Shown: one piece after another, positions 19,108 to 57,361 of the stretch
Position numbering within the stretch: position 1 is the stretch's first letter
Layout: each line of letters starts with the position of its first letter
Assembly (NCBI GenBank): GCA_019096195.1
Contig: JAGTXK010000243.1
Coordinates: 186,001-250,000, forward strand
From: Boletus sp. NGJ
Taxonomy: Eukaryota > Basidiomycota > Agaricomycetes > Boletales > Boletaceae
DNA: 64,000 nucleotides
Reading direction: 5' to 3'
Made by a program: the position numbers and the translations under genes
Notes under the pieces: generated by a model
The model's database searches: none
Seen by the model: the letters and a program-made list of their open reading frames with translations, nothing else
What the model was told of the DNA's origin: nothing

Positions 19108-19925
19108 AGAATGCACTAGCATGTCCAAAGCAGTACTCACTACGAATCCATGGGCGTACCTTCTGGGAGATCACGTTCTGGGCGTCGAGGCGACTGACTA
19201 CTCGCATTGGGGATAGGGTGTACTATCTGTTCGGAGTGATGGTGAACTCTTATACCGCAACTCTGTCCTGCGCCATAAGAGCCTCGTACCTGTGACATGA
19301 TGCAGGAGACAAAGGGAGAGCAAAGTGGTCCACAGAACGTTGTCCAAACCACGCGAAAACATCCCAACTAGGGTGCTTCATCGCAATAGCTTCGACTAGG
19401 CGTGAGAAAGCCCGCTGGCCACTAATCAATAGAGGTTGACGCGGAACAACCCGACAAGGTTGTCGCTGAAACCGTTCCCTCTTAACCCGATCGAACTCTG
19501 CTCAGTCGTAGAGCCAGAGCCTCGGGCCCGGCAAGCTGTTCCTCGCTAACCTGAAATCACGATCGGACAACAATATGAAAGTTCTTTGGAAGGTAGGGGA
19601 ATCTTGTTATGGGATGCGGAGCGGCCCGCCTCAAAACCATTCGTCGCGCTCGACAACTCTCGGCATGCGGAGTTACTGAGAAAGGGAAGTTGATGCGTGA
19701 TGGTGATATATTTGCATTCTTCTTTACTCGCAGGACAAAGAAGACGGTAGAACCAGGTGTATGGTGTATGAAGCTCCTAAATCTGTTACGGATATCCTGT
19801 GTGGGGAAGCCTGAGCCAGCCATGATACGGTCCCTCGGGCAACGAGTTCACCTTGTCGCTTGCGACGACCTTTATACGATCCCCTACTCCACTGAAATGA
19901 TAGGTTCGGATGTTCCTCTGCACTA
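19108..19925 (+). pseudogene. HET-domain pseudogene with an internally inverted block
   Basis: The plus strand reads a HET C-terminal half: 19108-19215 (IHGRTFWEITFWASRRLTTR) matches the intact HET gene at 31.5-33 kb (IHGRTFWEIISWASRRQTTR). The next block, about 19225-19450, matches the same gene only when read on the minus strand (HPSWDVFAWFGQRSVDHFAL against NPSWDIFAWFGQPSVDHFAL). From about 19465 the homology returns to the plus strand (IELCSVV, then RARQLSAC, WCMKL, NLLRISCVG, HLVAC). A segment of about 220 bp is therefore inverted within the gene. Stops and frame changes are frequent. Function has clearly been lost; the family is linked to vegetative incompatibility. Confidence 0.65.
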
Positions 19926-20183: not shown

Positions 20184-23015
20184 CTAATAAAGTGTATCCA
20201 GTCCCCCACTGCCATAGTACACGCTGATGAGTCTCTCGGCCTGCTCCCTCGTCAACCCACAGCGATATTGAAGGCTGTCGACAGTCATCTTCTTCTTGTG
20301 CGTTTTCCGCCCCCCAGTCATCTTCAGGCAAAATTTGGCTGAAATTTCTTGCACCCTTGCACGTCTGATGCGAGAAGAGACGGATTTCTCAAGCATAGCT
20401 TGAACGGATAGTCTAGATTCCAACAGTTTCTTGTCGAGCTGTATGCCGTCTGGATCGTGGTTCGCTAGCGACGTGATGCATGCATAACCTATCGCAGTCC
20501 CACCTATGGATTTGAGGAGGCCTTGTCCGTTCACTTCCCACCATCTCTCCATTGGATCGTGCGATTCGAGGTGGGTGACGACGAGCGCAGCTGGGACCTT
20601 CCCTCCGCAAAGGGCCTCTTTGAATAACCGATAGCAGTTGAGTTCAGATGGGGTGAGCTGCCCGCTTTTCTTGATGAAGACGATCAGGTCAATACCGCCC
20701 TCCTGAGACAAGGAGCGAATCAGCTGGGTGGCGCTCATTGCAGCTCGGATGTCGGGAATATTGTGCCTCATGGGTGCTGAGCCGAAACCTACGGTGTCCC
20801 AAATTTGGAACTGTTGCATCCCGGTGCTAATCTTGTATGCACAGGAATCCAAGGTGCAGAGGTCTGATCCTGAACCGACTTTGGCAATGGGATGCCCGAC
20901 AATGAGATTAATGACCGAGCTCTTTCCCACCCCCGCTTCTCCAAAAAAGACAACATTGAAGGGGCGCAGTGACCTGCTGAGCTTTTCTACCAGTGCTGTA
21001 GCATCGGGACGGCTCAATCCGCAGTGGGTAGTAAGGTTTGCAGAGGCGATCGTGTGAGACGAAAGAATCAAGACGAAGGGAAATCGGGGTGGTGGCGGCG
21101 GCATACGTTTGCAAGAGTGTTTTCAGCGCTTGTTTGGACTGATCACAGCCGGTCTGAACCGTGGTGACGCATGCATGTGGAATAGATTGAACTGGGATGC
21201 CGGTTCTTCGAGCGATGGTATTTTGATTGTGTTCCCACCACCGCCCATCCAGCGTATCAAAATGAGTCACGACGAGGGCTACTGGGGCACGACCGCCATA
21301 AAAGAAACCGTTGATCAACCGGTAGAGACTACCAAGCGAAGTGAAGATTTGGTTCTTGCATGCGCAGAGAAGAATAAGGTTAACGCCATCAGGGAGGTTT
21401 CGCAAGACAGCATGTGCTTGTTCGTAGGGTGAACGAGGATTGACTTCTCCCCAGTTGGCAAGGGAGAATCCCGCAGTGTCCCATAATCGGATTCGCTTTT
21501 CACCGATGGACATCTGGTACCATTGGGGTCGCTTGGTGCAAGGTTCTACGTCTGAGGATACGTGTGCGACTGGCTCCTCGGCAAGAAGATTGATGATCGA
21601 GCTCTTCCCACACCCGAGAGCACCGAATAGCACGACGTTGATATCAGATGTAGAACTTCGATCAAGAGTCAGAAGTTAGCAATTATATCATGACAGTAAC
21701 GTACTTGGGTTGTAACAGCTGTTCTAGTTTGTCTCTGGAGAACAACAATACTGCCTGCGCCGATGGTCGATTTCTCGGTAGTCGTGGAGACCAACATCGC
21801 TCGAAGAAGTTCCAAACACCGTCCGGAATGTTAGCAGGCCACACCGGGCGTGATGGATTCCGCAATTCCCTTAATTTATCTTCGGCCTCTGCACTGTTTT
21901 TCCAAGGAAATTGACCCGAAAGGATCTACATTTTTCAAATCAGAGGTTGAGATCAGAAATCGTTAATAGCAAAAGACAACATACAAAGAGCATGATGCTA
22001 CCAAGAGAGTAAATGTCGCTGTTAGGCGTGACTTCAATTTCGCGGTCCGGGTACAAATCTGGATATAGTAGCTCTGGTGCAGTCCACAGCATTGCACCGG
22101 CACGAACGGAGCTAGTCCAGACGGAGGACGATTGATCAGGCTCTGGGCTAAGAGTCTGAGATATTCCAAAGTCCGTGAGGCGCGGGTTATGATCACTGTC
22201 AATTAAGATATTGCCCTACAAATATACAGATCAGCCTGTTGACGTCAATCTAGTGATGCAACCCACGGGGTGGAAATCCATATGAACAACGGACTTCGAA
22301 TGCACTGCGGGAGGGTGTTATATAAACCTGCGACCAGCCAGAGATCTTGAACCTACGGTACTCTAGCCCGGCAGCTGCCCCTGTAATCTGTGACATCATC
22401 GTAAATTGGATGACAGTTCCAGAATCTCTTGTACTCACGAGTTGGATGCGACTAGGGAGCGACAGTTCATTCTCACGCTCCCAGATGTATTCAGCGAGCG
22501 TTCCATGTGGCATCCACATCGAAATCATGCAGGGATGATCGGATCCAAAGTCTTCACCGCGTGCTGTTCCCAAGAGGGGAACAATGTTCGGATGGTCTAA
22601 TCTTCTCCAAATCCCAAGCTCGCGTTTCACTTCCTAGAGCCAAACCAGAAGTTAGCAAAACATACGGCGGAGCATTGTCGCCAGCTCACCCGCATGAGCA
22701 TATCCTTCTCGGTTCCGTCGAGGCCACGATGGTAGGCAATAGCCTTGACTGCGACCTGAACATGAGGAAAATAGGTAAAAACACTGAGGGAAGTGACTGA
22801 GTATACTAACCTCCTCGCTCCGTGTACCAAAGGAATGATACACGGTGCTGAAAGAACCATGTGCAACAATACGTTTCTTACTCCGCTGAAGCGTGTCGGT
22901 GAGGTCCGGTAAATCCTTCAAATCGCCTTGTAGAGTTGTGCAGGTCGAGCTGCTTCTGGGAGATATACGTCAGAGTAAAGCGAACAACCAAGACGACGAC
23001 ATACCTTGAGTCCAT
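20184..23015 (-). CDS. Protein kinase fused to two tandem AIG1-like GTPase domains
   Basis: Model on the minus strand, ten exons: 23015-23005, 22955-22811, 22755-22690, 22633-22439, 22387-22357, 22304-22267, 22215-21985, 21925-21705, 21655-21107, 21012-20184; 771 aa. Introns are 49-94 nt and phases agree throughout. Residues about 30-300 are a TKL-type kinase: glycine loop AHGSFSTVYHS, VAVK lysine, catalytic loop VVHMDFHPGN, LTDFG, APELL, and a terminal RCW...RPSA motif. The next exon joins through a phase-2 intron (49 nt; branch site TGCTAAC; contains a stop if retained) to GTPase 1 (P-loop GALGCGKSS, switch LWDTAGF, ALVVTHFD). A 94-nt intron leads to GTPase 2 (GEAGVGKSS, IWDTVGF, ALVVTHLE). 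HRD is replaced by HMD, but Asp and Asn remain. The family resembles AIG1/GIMAP-like fungal G proteins. The fusion suggests a signalling switch; its targets are unknown. If the 94-nt intron is not used, GTPase 2 could start at 21104 as its own gene. Confidence 0.75.
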
Positions 23016-25211: not shown

Positions 25212-27065
25212 TCAGTAAGCGACGGCGGGAAGGCAATCTCCCGCGTGAATGCGGATGTAATCGTTTCCGAGGCCGCCAAACTGATCATCGTCCCCAGGAT
25301 AGTGGTATGAAGCGTTTGTGCCGTCCATGCAAGCACTATAGTTTGGCACACACCAATCGTAAAAGTTCGTTGCCCCTGCGTACTCGATGAAGATGGGCAT
25401 CTGCTCGTGTGGAGCTGTACACTCGGTCCAGCTCTTTGGCACACAATACGCGTTTTGCGTGTCTCGGATATAAGCAGGGGGCAATCCCTTGTCAAAGTCT
25501 GCGTTCGTAGAGCAAAAGTTGTAGGCCGCAAAGGATTGATCCTCGACAGGAGAAACGGAGGGCGTGTGGAGGGTATAGGTCAACCCTAGGCAATCGGGAG
25601 AAGGGGGTAGCCCTCTCGATGTCTCGAGGAGATTATACGGCTGTAATGATTACGTGCTTGAGAGAACATTGGTAACCGGCATCTGATCAATACTCACGTC
25701 ATTCCAGCGCGCCGGTGCGCCTTCTCTAAGTACGGATGGAAGAACCAAGGGAGACAGACACCCAATGGAATCCACTGACACGGCATGGGTAAGGCCTTCT
25801 GTTTGATCACTATTGAATGATGGGCACGGGCCCTGTCGAGTCTCCGCAATGTCGTACGAGACGTTGGCGAAGACGCTTTCAAGCGAGCTCTGACGATGGT
25901 GAGAGGATATCTGGTTCGGGGAGGATTGACCCGCTGGAGCAGAAAGCGAACGCCTGAACATCCCCGTGAGTGGGATCCGGAAACGGTCGTCATGAGAGGC
26001 GTCGGGGGTCTGAGCACGGATTTGAGGCGGGATAGAACCTCCGCATCTATTCGCCTGGATGGACCTAGGGTCGCCAGTTGAAGCGAGGGCCCCAGCGATC
26101 GTAGTGGAAATGATCTTCCCGTGGGTTTCGGCTTCGTTTGCCACCGCCACTTCTCTCTGTTCATCTCCGTCCTCCTTCCTGGTCCTTGCTCCATCTTTGC
26201 AGGAGTCATTCTGCCCACCAACCCGTCTACCGGCACTATCCTCCCATCGTCTTACCGCATCCTCAAGATCGATTCCTGTCTTCCCTTCCACCAAAAGATC
26301 CGCGATTATCGCGCATCTCTCGTCACCACTTTTCGCTTTCTTACCCGCAGGATCTCCTTTGACCTTTCGTCCAGGCTGAGTTGCTCGTTTTCGATTAGAC
26401 GCCTGAGGTCCGTCCTTGACCTTGAGCTTGGCGAGTGCGTTGGCTCCGGGTCTGAAACGCCAATCGGGGTATCGTTTCCTATGTTCCGCCTGTGCGACGA
26501 GCGCCTTTGCCTCCCAAACCTCCCTCTCTTCACGAGGAAGTGTCTTCCAATATTTACCTGTGATGCGGTCGTAATGCCACTCAACTTGTGATGATAAAGC
26601 AAGATTGCTTACCGATGATCTTTGAGAGGGTGCTATGGTTTCCTTCCACCTTCTCCGGAACTTGCTGGCTACGGATGAAGGACGATCTGAAGAGAATGAA
26701 GGCGTTGGGCGGGCGTGGGATATAAGAGGCGTCTCGCTTCCTGCCATGGGCTGCGCGGTCGGGGCCGTGGAACGTTGCTTGGGTCTCAGAGAGCTCGGCG
26801 AACTCAGCGGGAGCGGGGACTGGGTTCTCCCAGAGTGTTTCGAACGGAAGGGTGGGATCCGCACTCAGGGCAGTGATGGGCGTCATGTCGGTGAAGAATG
26901 TAAACGTCATTGATGGATTCGGGTTGTCGACGAGAGGAGGCATTCCGTCTGGTAGGTGATTTGATGAGAACTGGACGATGGACATTCCCAAAAAAAAAAT
27001 TAAAAAAACGCACCGTCGTCGTCCATGTTGCATTGGGGGATATCGTGTTCGCTGATCGTGGGCAT
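25212..27065 (-). CDS. HMG-box transcription factor 2 (SOX/MATA type)
   Basis: Model on the minus strand: 27065-27014, 26948-26613, 26557-25698, 25640-25212; introns of 65, 55 and 57 nt, phases consistent, 558 aa. The HMG box lies at about residues 93-165: YIPRPPNAFILFRSSFIRSQ, NHSTLSKIIG split by intron 2, KYWKTLPREEREVWEAKA and HRKRYPDWRFRP. A Lys/Arg-rich segment follows, then the block shared with genes 1 and 4 (DERCAIIADLLVEGKTGIDL) and an RRSLSAP motif. The last exon encodes a distinctive tail with several Cys, Tyr and Asp residues (NFCSTNADFDKG, VPKSWTECTAPHEQMPIF, GLGNDYIRIHAGDC) not obvious in the paralogues. The expected role is nuclear DNA binding, bending at a TTGT-type core, possibly in mating or fruiting. 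Long antisense open frames over exon 3 are shadows. Confidence 0.85.
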
Positions 27066-31480: not shown

Positions 31481-34400
31481 CTATTTCGATGTAGGAGATC
31501 GTATGGATGTTGTTACAAGCGACAAGGTGAAGGTTTTTCGTCCAGCCACACTAGCCGGCTGCGTATCCTTGAGATCTGGTTCCCGAATAACCGTATCACT
31601 ACCGGTCGTATCAGGCATCCCCACACAGGATATCCGTAAAAGGTTGTCGGTGCAAAGCTTCATCCATGGGATTTCATCATCTTCTCCGCTCTCCGAGTAG
31701 AGTAGAAAACAGATATAATCCGCCCCAACGACCAATTTCCCTTGCTGGCGACTCTGGGTGGGGTGGTGGTTGATTATGCATGCCGAGAGTTGTCGAGCGC
31801 CACGAATGATTCCAAGGCGGTCCGCCCGGCATTCCACGACGAGATCTCCGTACCTCCCCAAAAGACTTTCCTTGTCTGATCGTGGTTTCAGGTTAACGTG
31901 GAATGGGTGTCCGGGCTCGTCTGGGACTACGACTGAGCAGAGCTCCATCGGAATAGGAGGCAACGACTTCAGAAACAAGCTATCTGGAGTGATGGTGAAC
32001 TCTTGCACGCCAGCCCTACCCTCCACCATATGAGCCTCGAACCTGGGGTATGATGCGGGAGACGAGGGGAGAGCAAAGTGGTCCACGGAAGGTTGTCCGA
32101 ACCATGCAAAAATGTCCCAACTAGGGTTCTTTGCAGCAATAGTTTCGACAAGGCGCGAGAAAGCCCGGGTGCCCTCCCCATAATATATTGTAAGGTCGAT
32201 GTGCAACAACCCGACAAGACAGTAGGCCCTATCTTCAATGCGAGTCGTCTGTCGCCTCGACGCCCAGGAAATGATCTCCCAGAAAGTACGCCCATGGATT
32301 CCATGGCTGTTGTCAGCGGTGAGCACTGCTTTGCAAATGCCAGTGAAATTCTCGAGATGGTGAGCGACAGCGACGTCTTTTCTATCGTCGTCGACCTCGA
32401 GATGGTTGAAGGATTGCCAGTTTCTGTTGTAAAACTTGATTCGTCTAGGGGCTAAGAGGTCCAGAAGGGTCCAGCTTTCTATAAACCACGACTCGTGGAC
32501 CCAATCTTCATACGACGCAGACTCCGCAAGATAGACGATACAAAGGTACGAGTTTGCATACCACTTGTACATCGCTTGAGTAGCCTCGCTGAGCTCAGCC
32601 GTGTTCGATTGATCCACACAGCAAGTATCCACCCAGGCCAGCTTGCGTCCCAGGCTGCGAGATATCATGCAGAACTGTACGATCTTACTGGACGTGAACT
32701 TGTGCATGGAAGAGTAATTTCTATCACAAATATCCCGATAGGTGGGTTCACCGGCGATCTCATCCCGGCGATGAGACAGTACGTCGTATTTCACGACTTC
32801 TTGGATGATTTGTCTGAGAACGGTCGCGCGCTTAGACTGATGCGTAGCCAAGGGATCGCTCTGAGACATCCGTTCTTGGATCTGCTCTTCATCAACTTTT
32901 GCTATATCATCTTTGAGGACGCGAAGGACGCTCTTCCGTGAGACGAGTTGCAACGTTGACGTGTCAATGAAGCGGGCAGGTAATTCGTTGTCAATATATT
33001 CTTTGAAGGCATCGGCGATGGAACGGGAGGGCTGTTCGTCGCCATTGTTAGCTCAAGACCATTCGAAGAATTTGCATTTGGTTTCTCACCGACGAAGTCG
33101 GTGATTTCCCTTTCTTCCTGTTCCGGTGCCTCGCGGGAGAATGGCGACGTGAATGGGAAGGGGATGCATAGTGAGATGAAGATGGGCTCCCCGCACCTTG
33201 CGAAGGGTGACTGCTGACAATTCGGAGAGTTGGAGACCTAAACTGGCGGGAAACAAAGCGGGGCGTGCTCCGATCAGCACTCAAGCCCGTGGTAGTGACC
33301 TCATCAGTGCTGACGTAGTCTAACGTGATATCATTCGCGAAATCACCCAATCGATCAACATCAGAATGAGTTGGTGGTTCATGCTCTTTATCTCTCAGAT
33401 AGACAGTATCTGAGAGCAATGAGTAATTGTGACAACATGGAAATGTCATTCTTACCTGTATCTCTAACTATAGAATAGTGCATGGGCACTAATGCTTCAA
33501 GACGGTTCTCCAGGTCCTCCACCGTCCATGATTGTCCCTGGATCACGACACTTAAAAAACGAGCATGAGTAAGATGGATTCCTCACCCCTTCGGACGATT
33601 TGAGCATTGCTATCCACTGACTATCATGAGTCACAGCGATTTTTGCGGACGGTTCCTACACCGCCATGAGTATAACCGTCGCATACCTCAATCCAAGGCG
33701 GTACAAACCTTTGCCAATAGATACCGGTTGATAATCTCCGATGGATGAGATGCCTAACAAATAATTGCACTGATCTGGTCCCGGTGATGCAGGATAAATT
33801 TTACCTGTGTTATGTTTGGTACATGCTCAATTTTTACATTGCTTTTGGGGGTCTCTGTCGCTGTTTCCTGATTTGAGTCTCCCGCCGGAGAATTTAGGGA
33901 CAGAGGGAAGGAAAAAATCCTGCCGAGTAATCCAGCTTCTCGTTGTCCGCTCGGGACTTGTTCAAAGAGATTAGGTGTGACTGTGATTGCACGAATAAAC
34001 ACGGTTTGGTTATGTCGCCCTTGACGGTTTGACGGGGGGCCGATCTTGCGCTGAAAACGACCTGTAGGCTGCCAAACTGAGGCATCCCGTATAGTCAGTT
34101 CATCTACTTCCACCAACTTGCAATGCGTCCGGACTGGGTCGGTATTCGCAGCCATGTGCATGCTGAATGATGCAATGGACCACGAACACGTTTTATAGTA
34201 CCCAGTGAGTAGGTAGATCGAGTTGGATCGCGGCCATCCGAGACGATCTCTAAAACGCTCGAGCCAATCCGCCCCATGCTCCCTTGCATAGTCCTCGAAT
34301 AGTCGCCTATGATGGAGTCCAAGCTGAAACAATTGTGCCCCCTGAGGTAAGATGATATGTGATCCATCATCAGACAGGGTAGCACTATATTCAGTTGTTC

Positions 34401-34813
34401 TACGACTGGTCGCGCAGTCAGCTGCCGTTGCACGATTATGGGAGGAAGCTAGCATACCTGACACCAGCGTCGTCCATGACCGCTTCCACTTCATCAACAT
34501 CCCACATCGTTGCAGGGGATGAGGCTACCTCACGAGGTGGGATGTCTTCGCCGCCGTAGCGAGCATCCTCCTGCTCAATTGGTGGGAAGTTTGGTGGGGA
34601 GCCACCATTTCCTGGAGGAGGTTCAAAGATATTGAAGAAAAGATCGAATCGTCCTTGTTCATCGACGGTGCCAACGTCCCCGATCCTGAGGCCGACGCTC
34701 TGGCAAGCCGGTGGCAATAAGTCTGGGTCAGGGTTCCACAGAGGATAGCCATGTATGAAAAGATGTTTTGCAAATGCAGCTTGTAGAGAAGGAAGGGTTT
34801 GAGTGGGGGGCAT
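31481..34813 (-). CDS. HET-domain protein with N-terminal Agaricomycete 'GYPLW-GDVG' module
   Basis: Model on the minus strand, seven exons: 34813-34458, 34405-33805, 33753-33709, 33655-33587, 33537-33456, 33409-33090, 33031-31481; introns of 46-58 nt, every phase agrees, 1007 aa. Residues 1 to about 400 carry an Agaricomycete module I know only as hypothetical: HGYPLWNPDPDLLPP, RIGDVGTVDEQGRFDLFFNI, a Trp-rich middle (YYKTCSWSIASFSMH), then HPSEIINRYLLAK and KIAVTHDSQWIAML. A basic Ser/Pro-rich linker (about 440-491) follows. The HET domain occupies about residues 575-740 (KYDVLSHRRDE, LAWVDTCCVDQSNTAELSEA, MYKWYANSYLCIVYLAE, WFIESWTLLDLLAPRRIKFY), continuing with WEIISWASRRQTTRIEDRAY. HET domains trigger vegetative-incompatibility cell death. 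The link depends on the 58-nt phase-0 intron at 33032-33089; if it is retained, the N-module ends at 33048. The usual HET Trp in SHRW is Arg here. The C-terminus may continue in another frame below 31540. Confidence 0.7.
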
Positions 34814-35705
34814 ACTAAAGCCCTCAGCAGGAGAGCGAAAGGCTCGAGCCGGGGATTACCCGAAGGCACACGGTGTAACTTAGGGCTATATTATTACATA
34901 ACTTGAGCTCCCTTGGTGCTCTCCGACTTCCAAGGACGAGGGATTGGGCACCAACTACTCGTATGGTGCTAGAGCCTAGCATATAGCACGTTTCTCCAGC
35001 TGATAGAAACGGATCAGTGCGCGAGGACGTCGTTCAATGTACCAGTGTGTCAAGTGACCTTGCATGCCAGGAAGTCGAACGAACCTGCGATTAGACTGTA
35101 CACATCACTCAAGTTCTACACAAGGAAAACGAATCCTGAATATTGTGAGTCTGTCCGTCTAATGCATACGGCCATTGATGCATCTGATGGACCGTGTTAC
35201 ATGGATGATGATAGGGAAGATGCGTTTGCGACACTGCTCACGAATGACGTAAACACCTGATATTATCATTCGAGTGAATGGGCTCTAGACTATGAATATA
35301 GATGATGGCGAACCAATGTTTATATCGTCTTGGAGTCACCATGGCCACCACTATTCCTTCCGGGTCGGACTCCGTGACCGTTCGTTCCTTGGGCCAACTC
35401 TTCGAGGGACAAGACCCTCTCCCGTCCTTCTTGCATCCGCGGCAAGCACGTCCGTGATGGACCATCATCACGTGTCAACCATATTTAAGCTCGGGCGGTA
35501 TCCTCAGCTCCAAATGCGCCTGCGCCCCAACGCGATCCGCAGTCTTCGGGACCCATCCCAGCAGTTGCGACAACCGAAATACACGCGTGTCCACCGCGAA
35601 CGCCTGTCGTCCTAGACAAAACACACACGCTGCCGTCTTGGGGCCGACCCGTCGAGCAAAACCAGCGCTTGGCATCGCACATTCGTCCGTCACCCCCAGC
35701 GCTGC
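33311..35705. repeat. Segmental duplication, copy 1
   Basis: Near-identical to 38912-41302 in the same orientation. It covers the N-module exons of the HET gene, their upstream region and the 3' half of a HhH-GPD glycosylase gene. One breakpoint lies in the linker after the N-module, the other inside the glycosylase gene. A small block at about 34928-35010 is inverted relative to the corresponding bases at about 40480-40558. The N-module is intact in this copy. Confidence 0.85.
35290..35700 (-). pseudogene. Truncated HhH-GPD DNA glycosylase copy
   Basis: Matches the 3' half of the intact gene at 40902-41840 almost base for base (for example the blocks encoding HLELRIPPELKYG and KERTVTESDPEGIV), but the 5' half is missing beyond about 35705 and small deletions change the frame in the catalytic segment. 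It is the edge of the segmental duplication and cannot encode a glycosylase. Confidence 0.8.
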
Positions 35706-36355
35706 TCCGGCGAAGAGTCAGGAGGTCTTAATAGTGTGTCACCCATGTTTTGGCTCACTCTCCCTTACCTCCCCTATCGCGTGCCGCCGGCGGTCGATTC
35801 GATGTCATTCATTTTGTAGACAAGTATCACAGGATGCGGAGACGATGCGGTTACAGTTATTGGGCAATCCTGAGCTGCTTCGACAAGTCCATTTCGATCT
35901 TACCACCCACCTCGAGTTGACCTACTTTACAACAGACCCAACCTGAGTTGGCTAATGCGGGGAGGAAGAAATCCCGATAGCTCTGTTCAGGCGCTCCTGA
36001 GTCTTTAAATTGGAGCGTCGAGGGAGTAGGCTATCCAATTATGAATTGGGGGAAACGTGGATGTCGCCGCGAGTATGCTGTTCGGGGGTGAGGGTCAGAT
36101 GAACTATGCGGACATAGAGGGTGTTGACTTCAGAATGAGTGGGTAGAGGTTGAATGAATAGTCAAACTCGACTAAAACCAGGATGTGCAGATGTAAAATA
36201 ATATGCATTGCAGGGACATTTATAATTGCAACTTTGAACTGAATCCCGGCGGAAGCAAGTCCTGAAATATGTGATAACAGTTACAGACAGCAAGTATAAG
36301 CAAAGCAAAGCGCAGGAAGACAGAACGAGACAGCAAACGAGGATATAAAATTTAA
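35706..36355. other. Intergenic, nothing recognised
   Basis: About 650 bases between the duplication edge and the end of the TPR-CHAT sequence. No domain, repeat or RNA gene was seen. Confidence 0.5.
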
Positions 36356-38911
<2,556 letters not shown>

Positions 38912-38930
<19 letters not shown>

Positions 38931-41302
38931 GTGATATCTCACTGGGCAAGCGCAATCGATCAACATCAGAGTGAGTTGGTGGTTCATGCTCTTTATCTCT
39001 CAGATAGACAGTATCTGAGAGCGATGAGCAATTGTGACAAAATGGAAATGTCATTCTTACCTTTATCTCTAACTATAGAATAGTGCATGGGCACTAATGC
39101 TTCAAGACGGTTTTCTAGGTCCTCCACCGTCCATGATTGTCCCTGGATCACGACACTTAAAAAACGAGCATGAGTAAGATGGATTCCTCACCCCTTCGGA
39201 CGATTTGAGCATTGCTATCCACTGACTATCATGAGTCACAGCGATTTTTGCGGACGGTTCCTACACCACCATGAGTATAACCGTCGCATACCTCAATCCA
39301 ATGCGGTACAAACCTTTGCCAATAATACCGGTTGATAATCTCCGATGGATGAGATGCCTAACAAACAATTGCACTGATCTGGTCCCGGTGATGCAGGATA
39401 AATTTTACCTGTGTTATGTTTGGTACATGCATGCTCGATTTTTACATTGGTTTTGGGGGTCTCCGTCGCTGTTTCCTGATTTGAGTCTCCCGCCGGAGAA
39501 TTTAGGGACCGAGGGAGGGAAAAAATCCTGCCGAGTAATCCTGCCGAGTAATCCTGCCTCTCGTTGTCCACTCGGGACTTGTTCAAAGAGATTAGGTGTG
39601 ACTGTAATTGCACGAATAAAAAATGGTTTGGTTATGTCGCCCTTGACGGTCTGGCGGAGGGCCGATCTTGCGCTGAAAACGACCTGTAGATGAGGCTACC
39701 TCACGAGGTGGGATGTCTTCGCTGTCCCAGCGAACATCCTCCTGCTCGATTGGTGGGAAGTTTGGTGGGGAGCCACCATTTCCTGGAGGAGGTTCAAAGA
39801 TATTGAAGAAAAGATCGAATCGCCCTTGTTCATCGATGGTGCCAACGCCCCCGATCCTGAGGCCGACGCTCTGGCAGGCCGGTGGCAATATGTCTGGGTC
39901 ATAATTCCACAGAGGATAGCCATGTCACATGAAAAGATGTTTTGCAAATGCAGCCTGTAAGGAAGGAAGGGGTTGAGTGGGCATACTAAAGCACTCAGCC
40001 GGAGAGTGAGAGCGAGGGGAAGAACTCTAAAGCAGTGTAAGCGGCCTGACAGATACAGAGCATTGCACGAGAAACTGCACAATGACCAACTCGCGTCCGA
40101 CGTATTTACATTTACATCTTTTTGGTTGGGCCCAACATGGGACCCCGAAAATCAATGCAAGGTGACGGAAATCCATGACTACATATCGATTATGATCATA
40201 TCCACGACCTGCAGAGTTCCTCTCGTACGTCAAACATTCATAGTATACAAGTGTGTCGAGTCCAACGATCAGCGTTGCGCAAGTAAGGTTCGACACGCCG
40301 TAGTACCTCCAACTCTTTGGTGTCGGGGATGATCGATGGCCTTGAATGGTTCATCAGGTGGACAACAGCGAGATGCGTCCATCTTCGCTGCAAATGTGTC
40401 AGAGTCCCGCCGAGACACGCTTCATCGATCACTGTAGGCTTTCCTTCACCAAAAACGACCGTGACATTGGCTCGTTCTCGTTTCTGTCAGCTGGCGAAAC
40501 GCACTATATTGCTAGCGCCATACGAGGAGTCGTGGGTAGTCGGCGTTCAATCCCTCGTCCTTGGTATTCGGAGAGCAGGAAGAGAGAGCTCACATGCGGA
40601 TGCGTCGGCATCTGAGAACAAAATTTGACAAAGCTGCACGTTTGCTATCCCCTCCATCTAGCAAGACACGTGCCGACATTCTCGTCGTTGTCGTTCACCG
40701 CGGCGTACGAGAGCCCGGGCCACGTCGAGAGCCTGAGCACGATTAGGGCGGATCAGTGCAAACTGCAAGGACGGCGTTCGGAGGATGCGTTTGCGATGAA
40801 TCCCCTGCTCACGAACAACGTAAACACCTGATATTATCATTCGAGTGAATGGGCTCTAGACTATGAATATAGATAACGGCAAGATGATGGCGAACCAATA
40901 TTTATATCGCCTTGGAGTCACCATGGCCACCACGTTCCTCAACTATTCCTTCCGGGTCGGACTCCGTGACCGTTCGTTCCTTGAGCCAACTCTTCAAGGG
41001 ACAAGACCCTTTCCCGTCCTTCTTGCATCCGCGGCAAGCACGTCCGTGACGGACCATCATCACGTGTAAACCATATTTAAGCTCGGGCGGTATCCTCAGC
41101 TCCAAATGCGCCTGCGCCCCAACGCGATCCGCAGTCTTCGGGACCCACCCCAGCAGCCTCGACACCCGAAACACATGCGTGTCCACCGCGAACGCCTGTC
41201 GTCCGAGACAAAACGACAACACACACGCCGCCGTCTTGGGGCCGACCCCGTCGAGCGAGACGAGCGCTTGCATCGCACGCTCGTCCGTCACTCCTGGCGC
41301 TG
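38912..41302. repeat. Segmental duplication, copy 2
   Basis: Partner of 33311-35705. Here the N-module has lost about 450 bp relative to copy 1 (the part equivalent to about 34073-34523), while the glycosylase side is complete and runs past the breakpoint. This suggests copy 2 holds the ancestral glycosylase context and copy 1 is the transposed unit. Confidence 0.85.
38931..39984 (-). pseudogene. Decayed 'GYPLW-GDVG' N-module next to TPR-CHAT
   Basis: Homologous to exons 1-6 of the HET fusion gene. The start ATG (39984) is kept, but a three-base insertion adds a stop before the GYPLW motif, the middle third is deleted, and one-base changes shift the frame near 39620 and in the linker (about 38950-38960). 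Splice sites between the small exons are conserved. The linker runs on toward the TPR frame (SDEHPSYHYNQLGGFEEA), suggesting that the module once formed the N-terminus of the TPR-CHAT protein, as it does for HET in the other copy. Confidence 0.7.
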
Positions 41303-41840
41303 CGAGATGCTGGAGATCGTATCGCCCATGTTTCTTCTTGACAGCAATGAGCGCTTCCTGGATCGTCTTTGCCTTGCGATTCGCAAGACCGCCTGACCGA
41401 ATAGCATTAACTATCATCTCTCTGTCCGCGTTCGCCATCTTTTCAAAACCGGGTTCGCCCTGGCCGAAAACGCTGTCCAGGGAGCGTTTGGCGGCAGAGC
41501 TATTGGCAGACGAGGTGTTCTGAGAGAGAATCGTACCGATGAGCGCGTCAATGACGTTCGGCGTGCCTCCACATGTCATTGCAGAATTTGAGTCTGCCAA
41601 CGGTGGGCTGTGGACTGGAGCCCCTCCTGGCGTGTGCGAAGCAAGAAGGGCATAAATGGCCCGCACATCTGCCGTGGATGGATGAAGAAAGTCAGGAAAT
41701 GGTGAACGGATAGTATGATGAGCGAGTAGCTTTAGTTTTTTCGAAGCGTGCGCAGAATGTCCGTCCGAACGAGTGGTGCCGTCGGCTTGAACTGGCATAT
41801 ATCGCTGTGGAGGAGGCGAACTTGGTCGACGGCGTTTCAT
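40902..41840 (-). CDS. HhH-GPD DNA glycosylase (endonuclease III-like)
   Basis: Single-exon frame of 312 aa from the ATG at 41840 (MKRRRPSSPP). After a basic, low-complexity N-terminus (about 1-55), the helical glycosylase fold starts (PFPDFL, IDALIGTILSQNTSS). The helix-hairpin-helix is LVSLDGVGPKTAACVL, with the lysine position used by bifunctional glycosylases, followed by FAVDTHVFRVSRLLGW with the catalytic Asp. A Cys cluster near the C-terminus (HGRACRGC, then GSC) could be part of an iron-sulphur motif but has fewer cysteines than the four of EndoIII. Expected role: base excision repair of damaged pyrimidines in the nucleus or mitochondrion. Its 3' half is duplicated at 35290-35700. The basic start could serve as a nuclear signal. 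Confidence 0.85.
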   Translation of the reverse strand: MKRRRPSSPPPQRYMPVQADGTTRSDGHSAHASKKLKLLAHHTIRSPFPDFLHPSTADVRAIYALLASHTPGGAPVHSPPLADSNSAMTCGGTPNVIDALIGTILSQNTSSANSSAAKRSLDSVFGQGEPGFEKMANADREMIVNAIRSGGLANRKAKTIQEALIAVKKKHGRYDLQHLAAPGVTDERAMQALVSLDGVGPKTAACVLSFCLGRQAFAVDTHVFRVSRLLGWVPKTADRVGAQAHLELRIPPELKYGLHVMMVRHGRACRGCKKDGKGSCPLKSWLKERTVTESDPEGIVEERGGHGDSKAI

Positions 41841-41899
41841 TGTCACGGAAAAGGTCCTGTGTTCAAATCCATCAGAGTTCTTGCAAGTAGCGATGCAAC

Positions 41900-48874: not shown

Positions 48875-50535
48875 TGCCTGCGCTTCGCACTCGCGATACC
48901 CCTTCTCAATGTAAGTCCTCCCCGCTCTCCAATCAGCTTATCATCGCCCTCGATCGCCACCTAACCACTCACCGTTCGTAGCACTTGAGGTGATTACGGA
49001 CACCGTTCAGCAGCCATCTTTGGCCATTGTTTCTCCGACGCCGCGCGCCATCTCGTTTCCTTTCAACCAAACCCAAACCTGTCCCTACTCGTCTCCAATG
49101 TCTTCTCCCTTTGAGCCAGATCTCCGGAAGCTCACGCTCAGCCCCACACTCGTTCGCACCCTTTCTCCCTTTTCTTCTTCAGAAACGACATGCACCACGT
49201 CATCGTCGACATCTCTGTTCCCCACAGCGTCGTCAACGACTTCACTCTCCACATTCCCCGCGTCGCCATCATCGTCGCAGAAACGCCGCAAGTCATCGAT
49301 ATGCAGCGATATCGACCGCAGACCTAGGAAGGGTGACGAAGATTATATCAAGCGCCCCGAGAATGCGTTCATCCTATTCCGCAGAAAATGCTGCGAAGAC
49401 CGTCAGGCTGCCCAGGAGGATGCAGCAGCACTCGATGGGCCAGCGAAGAAGCAGCGCCAGGCAGATCTATCCAAAACGATCAGCCAACAATGGAAGGCAC
49501 TCTCACCCGAGGAGCGTCTGTATTGGGAGGAGTTGGCAAAGGAGAAGAAGAAGGAACACGAGCAGATGTACCCGAATTACGTTTATCGACCCCAAAGGAC
49601 CAAGGATCGGAAAGGAAAGAAGGGGAAGCGTGGCGAAGAAGGTGACTCTGAATCCAGCATCTCCTTCGTCCTTCCCCTGTGCGCACCCGCAGTCGGCAAG
49701 AATCACGGTCGTTCGTCCTCGGCCCCTACACCGCCTCGTCAGACCATCCAAATTCCGTCGGTTTACCTGCCTTCGTGCCCTACGTCACCATCAATGATGT
49801 CGATGATCAACCGGAGAGCATCGCATCCGGATCACGGATCAAGTTCGTCTTCTCAATTCGATTTCGTGGCTTCGAACACTGCTATGCCTCAGCAGCAATA
49901 TTCCCCCTCGGAGGTGTTCCCAGATGTTCACGTAAGTCGTTCGAATGACTCTCAATGGACCGTCCTTTGATCGCTTTCGATAGGCTGGTGGTCTGTATCT
50001 CCCCGAAAACCCGCATTCTCTGTCGATATCGTGCAACATGTCGACGAGCCATACCGTCCACCAGATGGGATCGCCTGCATCGTCGGTCAGTTCAGGATCC
50101 GGGCCGTCATCGCCAGCATCGAGCGCCTTCTCTCCTATGGCCTGCATACCAGGGGATTTCTCGTACCCTCTTGCGCCATGTGACGAGCTTGGTTCACAGG
50201 CGGTGGCTGGGTCATTCTGCGGAGGTCCCTTGGACGTGCAGTTCGATTACCCGCCATCTTCGTGGGAAGCAGCCGGCGCATGGGGAAGCCAGAGTCATCT
50301 GCTTGCGGGCGACGAATTTGACATGAGCGCAATTCCACCAGTCGAGCTTGGTATCCCCGAGTGTGGCGACAACATTTTGCCACATGCTCTATCTGGGACC
50401 TTCACCCTCGGATACACCGATGGCCCCTATGATCCCATGGTGATGGAAGCGAGTCAATATTCCACCGATTCGCAGAACCAGTTTGAGCAACTCTTCAATT
50501 TCGAAAGCATGCTCGCTGCCCACCACGGATATTAG
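48875..50535 (+). CDS. HMG-box transcription factor 3
   Basis: Model: 48875-48911, 48982-49931, 49984-50535; introns of 70 and 52 nt, phases consistent, 512 aa. The start MPALRTRD is like the other HMG genes. Residues about 20-120 are Ser/Thr/Pro-rich. The box, about 133-215, reads DYIKRPENAFILFRRKCCED, an inserted Ala/Gln stretch, then ADLSKTISQQWKALSPEERL, YWEELAKEKKKEHEQMYPNY and VYRP. The IKRPENAFILFRRKCCED signature is one I associate with a widely conserved basidiomycete HMG subgroup, distinct from the RPPNAFILFR genes 1, 2 and 4. A Lys-rich nuclear signal (KDRKGKKGKR) follows, then GRSSSAP. It lacks the DLLVEGK block. The C-terminus is acidic and aromatic (activation-like). BUB3 follows 0.8 kb downstream on the same strand. 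Confidence 0.88.
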
Positions 50536-55656: not shown

Positions 55657-57361
55657 ATGCCTCCGTCCCGAATTCATGGCCGCTATTCCATCGGACGTCG
55701 TCCCTCCTCTTTTGCAAGTCCAACTTGTAAGTGTTTCACCACCTCCTCGGTGCTCCCTACTGAGACACGACCTGTACAGCCGACCTCATCAAACCAGGCA
55801 TCTATGGTGCATCGCCATCGCCACGTTCTGTAACGTTCGCCCCCAACGTCACTCCGGGTACATACAAGGAATCCGACGATCTCACCCTTGAAACCGTTGA
55901 CGAGGTCTCCCTATCCCCTGATGCACAGCTTTTCCCACCGTCAGAGCAACTGCCCAACCCTGCCTCGAAGAGACGTGCTCCCCCCGGCAAGCGCAGGTCG
56001 CTTGGTTACATCCCTCGCCCGCCAAATGCGTTCATGCTCTTCCGTGCCGATTTCGTCAGGCAGAAGCATGTTCCTGGGTCGATCGAGACTAATCACGGCT
56101 CGCTGTCAAAGATCATCGGCAACTGTTGGCGCGCGCTTCCTCTGGAGGAAAAGCGCATATGGGAGATCAAGGCAAAGCAAGAGAAGGAGGCCCACTCCAA
56201 GCGATACCCGGGCTACCGCTTCAGGCCCGTGCACAACAAGAACAAGATGAAGAAGAAGGAAAAATGTTCCCCAACGCCTGAGGATGAAAGACGTTGCGAG
56301 GAAGTCGCGCACCTGTTACTCGTGGGGATGAAGGGTGACGAGCTTGCCGCTGCTATTCGCAGGATGGACGAGAACAAGGTGGTTGCTCCTGCACCCCAGT
56401 TGCAGCATCAACCCTTCTACCCTCCTCGTCGGCCCTCTTCCGTTCCTCTTCCCGACTCACGCTTTCATCCAATTGCAATCCCGTCTGTACCGTTCTTTAC
56501 GTCGGGTTCACGCTCAGCTTCGCCCGTGAACAACATCTCGCGGAGCGCACGTATGATCATCGGCCAACGTCGTCCCTCTAGTGCGTTGCCTCATTTCGGA
56601 CGGACTTCCTGGGGAGTGGACGATATCCCATTGTTCACCTCCGTTCCTGTATCGAGCTTCTATCCTCCTTCCCAGTCTTCGCTCCAGCGCGATGAATCGC
56701 CGCTTCCAGATGTTGATACAAGCCTGTTCGAGGACGCGTTCTTGAATTCCGCCTCTGCGTTCCTGACTGGACCTGGGGAGCCTCCTGCCACGGTTCGTAC
56801 TCGTTTGTTTTCATTGTATGTGATGCTTAGTCTTTTCCACAGACCTTCAACGATATATTCCCCAACGTTGCGCCACACGCAGCCTCTGCGTCGCCTGCGT
56901 CGTACGATCTCGCACCAATACACCACATTTCACCGCAAGACATGCCGCTTTCCCTGGACTGTATGACTGCCTCTCATTTGGACTTCCAGCACTCGAACGC
57001 CCTCACGGCGTCGTGGAACCAACCACCAATGGAATTCTCCAATTCTGGACCTTCATCGACTTACAGTGGATCTCCGGCTCGATCGGACCTCAGTCTCCCG
57101 GTCATCGCACCACAGCCGCAGCATGTCCCTGAGGCGTTTACGTTTGACATGTGGAACGACATTGCTTCGTCTTGTCAAGCTCCTGACGGCAAGGCCACAC
57201 TCGGCGAAGTCCGGGGACTGCCAGTTGCCCTGGCAACGAACCACCTCGGTGTTCCTGCCGTCGCAGTTGCTGGCGTGGACATCGGTGCAGATCAGCAGAT
57301 GCATCTTCCAGGATTCGAGATGATGTTCGATGGTACCTTTACCGGCATGGAAGAGTTTTGA
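55657..57361 (+). CDS. HMG-box transcription factor 4 (SOX/MATA type)
   Basis: Model: 55657-55726, 55780-56792, 56843-57361; introns of 53 and 50 nt, phases consistent, 533 aa. It starts MPPSRIHG. The box lies at about residues 100-172: GYIPRPPNAFMLFRADFVRQ, NHGSLSKIIGNCW, LEEKRIWEIKAKQEKEAHSK, RYPGYRFRP. A Lys-rich run (NKNKMKKKEK) and the block shared with genes 1 and 2 (DERRCEEVAHLLLVGMKGDE) follow, then Pro/Ser-rich sequence with QRRPSSAL. The last exon has an FTFDMWNDI-type motif and ends in an acidic-aromatic tail (FDGTFTGMEEF). It lies closest to genes 1 and 2 in the box and shared block, not to gene 3 next door, so the array is not a simple head-to-tail duplication. Expected nuclear DNA-binding regulator; target genes unknown. 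Confidence 0.88.

What the first reader, a model, noticed from the sequence alone, without database searches (positions are those of the whole stretch)
31481..39984. One N-terminal module joined to two different death-type domains by segmental duplication
The same 'GYPLW-GDVG' module, with the same small exons, sits in front of a HET domain in copy 1 (34813-31481) and in front of a TPR-CHAT sequence in copy 2 (39984 to 36356). The duplication edge lies in the linker right after the module (about 33311 and 38912). This looks like a domain swap between two classes of fungal cell-death effectors through one shared input module. The module's own role is unknown; it may be a sensor or partner-binding part.
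Basis: partly seen in the sequence, partly recalled or inferred. Interest (0 to 1): 0.85.

Follow-up and report, generated by a model that had tools for sequence, protein, structure and literature searches.

The report
One fungal module, many output domains
In this fungal genome one uncharacterised protein front end of about 390 residues is joined to several quite different back ends (a cell-death HET domain, a repeat array, protein kinases, a DNA-binding domain), which suggests a shared input part that evolution plugs into different outputs, though what it senses is unknown.

Summary
Copy 1 (34813-31481, minus) splices cleanly into one 1000-aa protein: a ~390-aa module of unknown family, a Ser/Arg-rich linker and a HET domain. 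Four close HET paralogues on the same contig have no module match beside them; their sequence aligns across window intron 33089-33032, and three of four show a short own first exon with an ATG. Copy 1 keeps that intron and the end of that exon, but no ATG in the spliced HET frame. It is most likely a real gene fusion. Copy 2 is a relic: 451-bp deletion, several frameshifts, a foldback before CHAT. The survey matters more. Of 13 solid module places in this genome, 10 have an open module. Five of these 10 read in frame into HET, a TPR array, a kinase (two loci) or Zn2Cys6. One joins a C2H2 gene whose stand-alone relative is found, but is frameshifted. Three have a kinase, TPR-like or WD40 part on the same strand with the link unresolved or interrupted. 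One stands alone. Inferred role: shared input module. Expression untested.

The parts
34458..34813 (-). copy 1 module, exon 1 (GYPLW...IGDVG part)
   Evidence: M1 and P2 invariant in 6 of 6 aligned subfamily-A modules
33805..34384 (-). copy 1 module, exon 2 (LPQGAQ...YLLTGYYKTCSWSIASF part)
33709..33753 (-). copy 1 module, exon 3
33587..33655 (-). copy 1 module, exon 4 (AVTHDSQW part)
33456..33537 (-). copy 1 module, exon 5
33090..33409 (-). copy 1 exon 6: end of module (DTVYLRD), linker, and the 3' end of the former HET exon 1; no ATG in the spliced HET reading frame
33032..33089 (-). intron 6, which corresponds to intron 1 of the stand-alone HET genes
31481..33031 (-). copy 1 exon 7: HET part (PF06985, E 2.4e-8)
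33140..33245 (-). fusion junction zone: similarity to the C2H2-locus module linker ends near 33245, similarity to HET exon 1 begins near 33140 (strong from about 33124); about 105 bp of unknown origin between
33300..35705 (-). segmental duplicate, copy 1 side (glycosylase 3' fragment + module + start of linker; a stretch between glycosylase and module does not align)
38906..41303 (-). segmental duplicate, copy 2 side
38906..39984 (-). copy 2 module relic (451-bp deletion and several frame-shifting indels)
37622..38938 (-). copy 2 TPR part (PF13374), out of frame with the module relic
36526..36945 (-). copy 2 CHAT part (PF12770, E 6.4e-16), separated from the TPR part by a foldback
40902..41846 (-). 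HhH-GPD DNA glycosylase ORF beside copy 2, whose 3' end is duplicated together with the module

Best explanation
Shown from sequence: window copy 1 is a chimeric gene in which a ~390-aa module, found at 13 solid places in this genome (3 of them relics), is joined through its linker into exon 1 of a HET gene of a family whose other members stand alone, reusing that family's intron 1. Sister copies of the module lead, in frame, into a TPR array, protein kinases and a Zn2Cys6 domain; a C2H2 copy has the same kind of junction but is frameshifted. Inferred: the module is a shared input or partner-binding part, and its fusions place different outputs (HET-type cell death, kinase signalling, DNA binding) under the same input. 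For copy 1 the expected mode of action is that a signal or partner recognised by the module changes the state or assembly of the protein and so switches on the HET domain. Copy 2 is a decayed variant with TPR-CHAT.
For: Open 1000-aa model for copy 1; HET Pfam hit. Four HET paralogues on C20 (66-78% identity), not at any place with a module match, align across the intron; 3 of 4 show a GTGAG donor and a 20-codon ATG exon. Intron and exon-1 end kept in copy 1 (nhmmer E 4.7e-46) with no ATG in the spliced HET frame. Clean chains: module-TPR 1039 aa; module-kinase at C21:78k and C21:90k and module-Zn2Cys6 at C59, no stop or frameshift. C2H2 junction with its stand-alone relative at C59:233k: similarity to the copy 1 linker ends at base 418 and similarity to the stand-alone gene begins at base 419 of the same stretch. 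Module dN/dS 0.21-0.64 in 15 of 15 pairs of six open modules; HET part 0.30-0.46 against four stand-alone paralogues. Copy 2 carries several lesions, copy 1 none.
Against: No transcript was seen. No structure was obtained, and the module has no Pfam or PDB match, so 'input module' is inference only. Three of 13 modules are relics and the C2H2 fusion is frameshifted, which also fits chimeras that arise by duplication and are then lost. At C3, C77 and C117 my models give one stop, one frameshift and two frameshifts between module and back end, and the TPR matches at C77 are below the curated cut-offs. At C21:90k the model reaches the kinase in frame but with an uncertain intron inside the kinase N-lobe. 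The HET match covers only 62 of 146 profile positions.
Confidence: 0.55

Rival explanations
1. Neutral chimeras: in contigs with many duplicated HET, GTPase and module genes, segmental duplication keeps placing the promoter and 5' end of the module gene in front of whatever lies downstream. The joined proteins have no selected function as fusions and decay.
For: Three of 13 modules are relics (copy 2, C21:71k, C109:415k) and the C2H2 fusion is frameshifted; modules share contigs C20, C21 and C3 with many HET or GTPase matches.
Against: Copy 1 and the TPR fusion are fully open over 1000 and 1039 codons, while copy 2, whose long module blocks are 1-8% diverged from copy 1, has several lesions. 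dN/dS is below 1 in module and HET. These ratios do not test the joined state itself.
Confidence: 0.3
2. Two separate genes: the module is its own gene and HET starts from its own promoter; the open reading through the linker is accidental.
For: If intron 33089-33032 is kept, the module frame ends 13 codons later; a stand-alone module exists at C75:179k.
Against: No ATG in the spliced HET frame between 33409 and 33032; five ATGs in 33382-33169 share the unspliced HET frame but stop after 4-27 codons; the first usable one (32869) would cut off the N-terminal part that the four stand-alone paralogues keep. In the TPR locus the module end and the TPR array share one exon.
Confidence: 0.12
3. The module is a targeting or stability part (it places or degrades the attached protein) rather than a sensor.
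For: The outputs are so different (HET, TPR, kinase, DNA binding) that a general handling signal would also fit.
Against: About 390 aa with many invariant positions is large for a localisation signal (judgement, not tested).
Confidence: 0.2

Closest known systems
Combinatorial domain fusions of fungal NLRs (PMC4986451, passages read)
   Same: Recent swaps of effector domains next to a nearly identical partner domain; the paper describes pairs with 80-99% identical NOD domains and distinct N-terminal domains.
   Different: No NACHT or NB-ARC match in the module or HET exons tested. The constant part is N-terminal and the changing output C-terminal. Outputs include a Zn2Cys6 domain and a C2H2 gene.
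Stand-alone HET genes of the same genome (C20:267k, 299k, 361k, 403k)
   Same: 66-78% identical HET part, same intron place
   Different: Short own first exon (ATG-donor model found in 3 of 4); no module match there
Effector-associated and Death-like adaptor domains of bacterial conflict systems (PMC8195603, PMC7159879: search listing and start of abstract only)
   Same: One adaptor family shared by several effectors (recalled)
   Different: No sequence relation shown; those are small domains (recalled), this module is about 390 aa; a scan of bacterial and archaeal genomes with two short peptide patterns found no relative
TPR-CHAT proteins (PF12770; CHAT discussed in PMC10197012 and PMC12881547, passages read)
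   Same: Copy 2 C-terminal parts match TPR_10 and CHAT
   Different: Copy 2 is interrupted, and its module relic is out of frame

Membership tests
HET-domain proteins (PF06985) | Pfam HET match above the curated cut-off | tested here: met
   34.9 bits against a cut-off of 22.5, profile positions 32-93 of 146
HET-domain proteins (PF06985) | cell-death activity | not testable with these tools
   needs expression in a cell
Fungal NLR (STAND) receptors | NACHT or NB-ARC nucleotide-binding domain | tested here: not met
   no such match in module exons 1 and 2, exon 6 or the HET exon; six whole modules have no Pfam match better than E 0.1
TPR-CHAT proteins (copy 2) | TPR repeats and CHAT in one open frame | tested here: not met
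   both domains match, but a 284-nt inverted repeat with a T-run lies between them
Shared module family of this genome | five introns at matching places in the module | tested here: met
   five module introns in each of the six open subfamily-A modules and in C59, C75, C77 and C117 (in C21:78k the fifth appears only); places compared by eye, phases not compared across the two subfamilies
Any described domain family for the module | Pfam or PDB sequence match | tested here: not met
   fold comparison not possible because no structure prediction ran

The most novel reading that the evidence does not exclude
The module defines a class of non-NLR fungal receptors: one conserved input domain wired directly to interchangeable outputs (HET death domain, kinase, Zn2Cys6 or C2H2 DNA binding, TPR), so that one signal could trigger death, phosphorylation or transcription, with new wirings still arising by insertion of the module into the first exon of stand-alone genes.
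Probability: 0.3. Interest if true: 0.82.

Novelty: new variant of a known kind. Interest (0 to 1): 0.62.

Why it matters
Fungal NLRs are described as receptors whose N-terminal effector changes (PMC4986451, passages read). Here the arrangement is reversed: a constant N-terminal module that I found in no library searched, and changing outputs, with two fusion events (HET, C2H2) for which stand-alone relatives of the back end and the junction are visible in the same genome. If the module is a sensor, comparing the HET, kinase and Zn2Cys6 versions could tell what it senses, and the stand-alone form at C75:179k offers a control without an output.

Tried and rejected
Two equal, working copies (first reading): rejected, copy 2 is broken.

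HET neighbours on C21 as fusions: rejected; those HET matches lie on the other strand or upstream of the module.

Copy 1 as derived directly from the copy 2 TPR-CHAT gene: not supported. Copy 1 shares its linker with the C2H2 locus about 55 bp beyond the copy 2 breakpoint, so the junctions look separate.

Module in bacteria or archaea: no relative in genome contigs (two short peptide patterns used, so distant relatives could be missed). Viral contigs, phages and plasmids were not searched.

Known fold: no PDB sequence match with E below 0.077; no structure prediction ran.

A caspase-like string after Zn2Cys6 at C59 (L030) was seen by eye; Pfam gave nothing at E 0.01.

In print: eight searches. 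I judged by the listed titles and abstract starts only, and some lists were cut (20 of 76, 15 of 44, 10 of 267). None of those listed names such a module. The library holds open-licence papers only, and other fungal proteomes could not be searched, so a description elsewhere is possible.
Full report
1. What is in the window. On the minus strand, seven exons from 34813 to 31481 join without stop into 1000 aa. The first ~390 aa form a module with no Pfam family and no PDB sequence relative (best E 0.077). Then come a Ser/Pro/Arg-rich linker and a HET domain (PF06985, 34.9 bits, E 2.4e-8). Upstream lies a second copy; its module blocks of 50 nt or more are 92-99% identical, while a global alignment of the whole duplicated stretch, including an unalignable part before the module, gives 85% (1669 of 1963 positions). 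Copy 2 keeps the small exons, but 451 bp covering the end of exon 1, intron 1 and the start of exon 2 are gone, and several length differences shift the frame, one of them between module and TPR. Its TPR part (PF13374, E 1.1e-7) and CHAT part (PF12770, E 6.4e-16) are separated by a perfect 284-nt inverted repeat with 100 nt, a T-run, between the arms. Copy 2 is therefore a relic; if the foldback is an assembly fault, its module is still broken.

2. The HET fusion. The genome has 53 HET matches (a lower bound by the tool's note). The copy 1 HET part has close paralogues on the same contig at 267k, 299k, 361k and 403k (76, 78, 67 and 66-78% identity), none at a place with a module match. I fetched DNA upstream of these four. 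An ATG exon of 20 codons with a GTGAG donor is found in 299k, 267k and 403k; in 361k the donor reads differently and my script gave no ATG-donor model, although an ATG stands at the aligned place. All four align from the first codon of window exon 7 and across the intron. In copy 1 this intron (33089-33032) and the last ~35 bp of that exon are kept (nhmmer E 4.7e-46, alignment from about 33140, strong from about 33124). No ATG in the spliced HET frame lies between 33409 and 33032: the five ATGs of exon 6 (33382-33169) are in another spliced frame and, read unspliced, stop after 4-27 codons; the next one in the HET frame is at 32869. So the native HET start is gone and the module supplies the start. 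The linker of copy 1 is similar to that of the C2H2 locus down to about 33245 (blastn E 5e-18). About 105 bp between the two similarities have no known source.

3. The survey. Searches of the same genome with exon 2 of copy 1, with the C59 module and with the full copy 1 module give 13 solid places: subfamily A with 8 (copy 1, copy 2, C20:337k, C20:342k, C21:71k, C21:78k, C21:90k, C3:241k) and subfamily B with 5 (C59:722k, C75:179k, C77:101k, C117:219k, C109:415k). One more weak match (C117:121k, E 0.0035) was not examined, nor was what follows C109:415k. Three of the 13 are relics: copy 2; C21:71k (a stop in the module; exon 2 runs into the end of a GTPase-like part); C109:415k (six stops in the match). 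The other 10 give modules without stop or frameshift. Five module introns are found in each of these 10, at matching places by eye.

4. What follows the 10 open modules. (a) Clean chain in frame, 5 loci: HET (copy 1); a TPR array in the same exon as the module end, 1039 aa in all (C20:342k; TPR_10 E 1.3e-20); protein kinase at C21:78k and C21:90k, without stop or frameshift into the kinase (an intron inside the N-lobe of C21:90k is placed differently), the kinase domain modelled to its end, with an MMR_HSR1 GTPase downstream whose link to the kinase I did not test (Pfam on C21:78k; C21:90k is 99% identical there); and Zn2Cys6 at C59 (Zn_clus E 1.7e-5), where splicing completes C-x2-C-x6-C-x6-C-x2-C-x6-C (that this is the family pattern is recalled). 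(b) Junction clear but damaged, 1 locus: C2H2 at C20:337k. Its stand-alone relative at C59:233k is 83-85% identical in the two long aligned DNA pieces (618 and 262 positions). Similarity to the copy 1 linker ends at base 418 and similarity to the stand-alone gene begins at base 419 of the same stretch, about 120 nt after the stand-alone gene's ATG. A one-base length difference shifts the frame before the zinc fingers; my rough models of both the fused and the stand-alone gene also meet a stop near the second finger, probably from a wrong intron. (c) Same strand, link not resolved, 3 loci: kinase at C3 (PK_Tyr_Ser-Thr 24.9 bits, cut-off 23.1; one stop in the linker of my model), TPR-like at C77 (E 8.3e-5 and 4e-5, below the curated cut-offs; none in the exon tested; one frameshift in the model), and WD40 at C117 (E 2.9e-13; two frameshifts in the model; kinase-like exons behind it read by eye). 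(d) Alone, 1 locus: C75:179k, where the module end is followed by a stop 16 codons later; next on the strand is a DSBA-like match.

5. History. The tree of the 10 open modules separates the two subfamilies (100/100). It pairs the TPR and C2H2 copies (92/96, below the tool's star threshold), whose modules differ by dS 0.105, so those two neighbours probably acquired different back ends recently; the deeper order inside each subfamily is open. Module dN/dS lies between 0.21 and 0.64 in 15 of 15 pairs of the six open subfamily-A modules; 161-216 HET codons give 0.30-0.46 against the four stand-alone paralogues. These are simple pairwise counts without a test of significance.

6. Function. Shown: gene structure, fusion junctions, variety of back ends, ratios below 1 in both halves. 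Inferred: the module is the shared input and the back end the output. HET domains are described as TIR-like and sufficient to induce cell death when overexpressed (PMC12881547, passages read), so for copy 1 the likely output is regulated cell death. I rate the input reading at 0.55, neutral chimeras at 0.3 and separate genes at 0.12; a targeting or stability role (0.2) overlaps with the others.

7. Known or new. Swaps of effector domains on nearly identical NOD domains are known in fungal NLRs (PMC4986451, passages read). This family lacks the NLR nucleotide-binding domain in what I tested, has the constant part in front, and reaches DNA-binding and kinase outputs. Eight paper searches listed no description (titles and abstract starts). 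I also looked at passages of PMC9815663 on NLR effector domains and PMC10197012; the passages shown do not describe it. Other fungi could not be searched, and I recall, without a test, similar 'IGDVG' front ends in other mushroom-forming fungi. I therefore call it a new variant of a known kind.

Noticed in passing
window 37135-37802: Perfect 284-nt inverted repeat with a 100-nt T-run between the arms inside the TPR-CHAT sequence: a recent foldback or an assembly fault.
   Followed up: partly
window 35345-35705 and 40937-41303: The 3' end of an HhH-GPD DNA glycosylase gene is duplicated together with the module; only the upstream gene is a long ORF.
   Followed up: partly
window 34842-35233 and 40013-40804: The stretch between glycosylase and module does not align well between the copies and looks partly inverted by eye, so the promoters probably differ.
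   Followed up: no
window 25653-26864, 48993-49967, 56037-56963: Three ORFs with HMG_box matches in one 64-kb window (E 4.2e-5, just below the curated cut-off, 4.3e-10 and 1.3e-7, which tested 10 of the 31 ORFs).
   Followed up: no
window 20187-21633: Two overlapping ORFs with MMR_HSR1 GTPase matches; this GTPase family is large in the genome (90 matches) and many lie on contig C20.
   Followed up: no
window 19211-19423: A HET fragment with two stops, 66% identical to the copy 1 HET.
   Followed up: no
C21:80431-81162 and C21:92157-92888: The GTPase parts behind two module-kinase genes are 99% identical while their modules differ by dS 0.236, which suggests recent copying or conversion of the back end.
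   Followed up: partly
L030 5458-5914 (C59): An ORF behind the Zn2Cys6 domain reads like a caspase-type sequence by eye (recalled resemblance); Pfam gave no match at E 0.01.
   Followed up: partly
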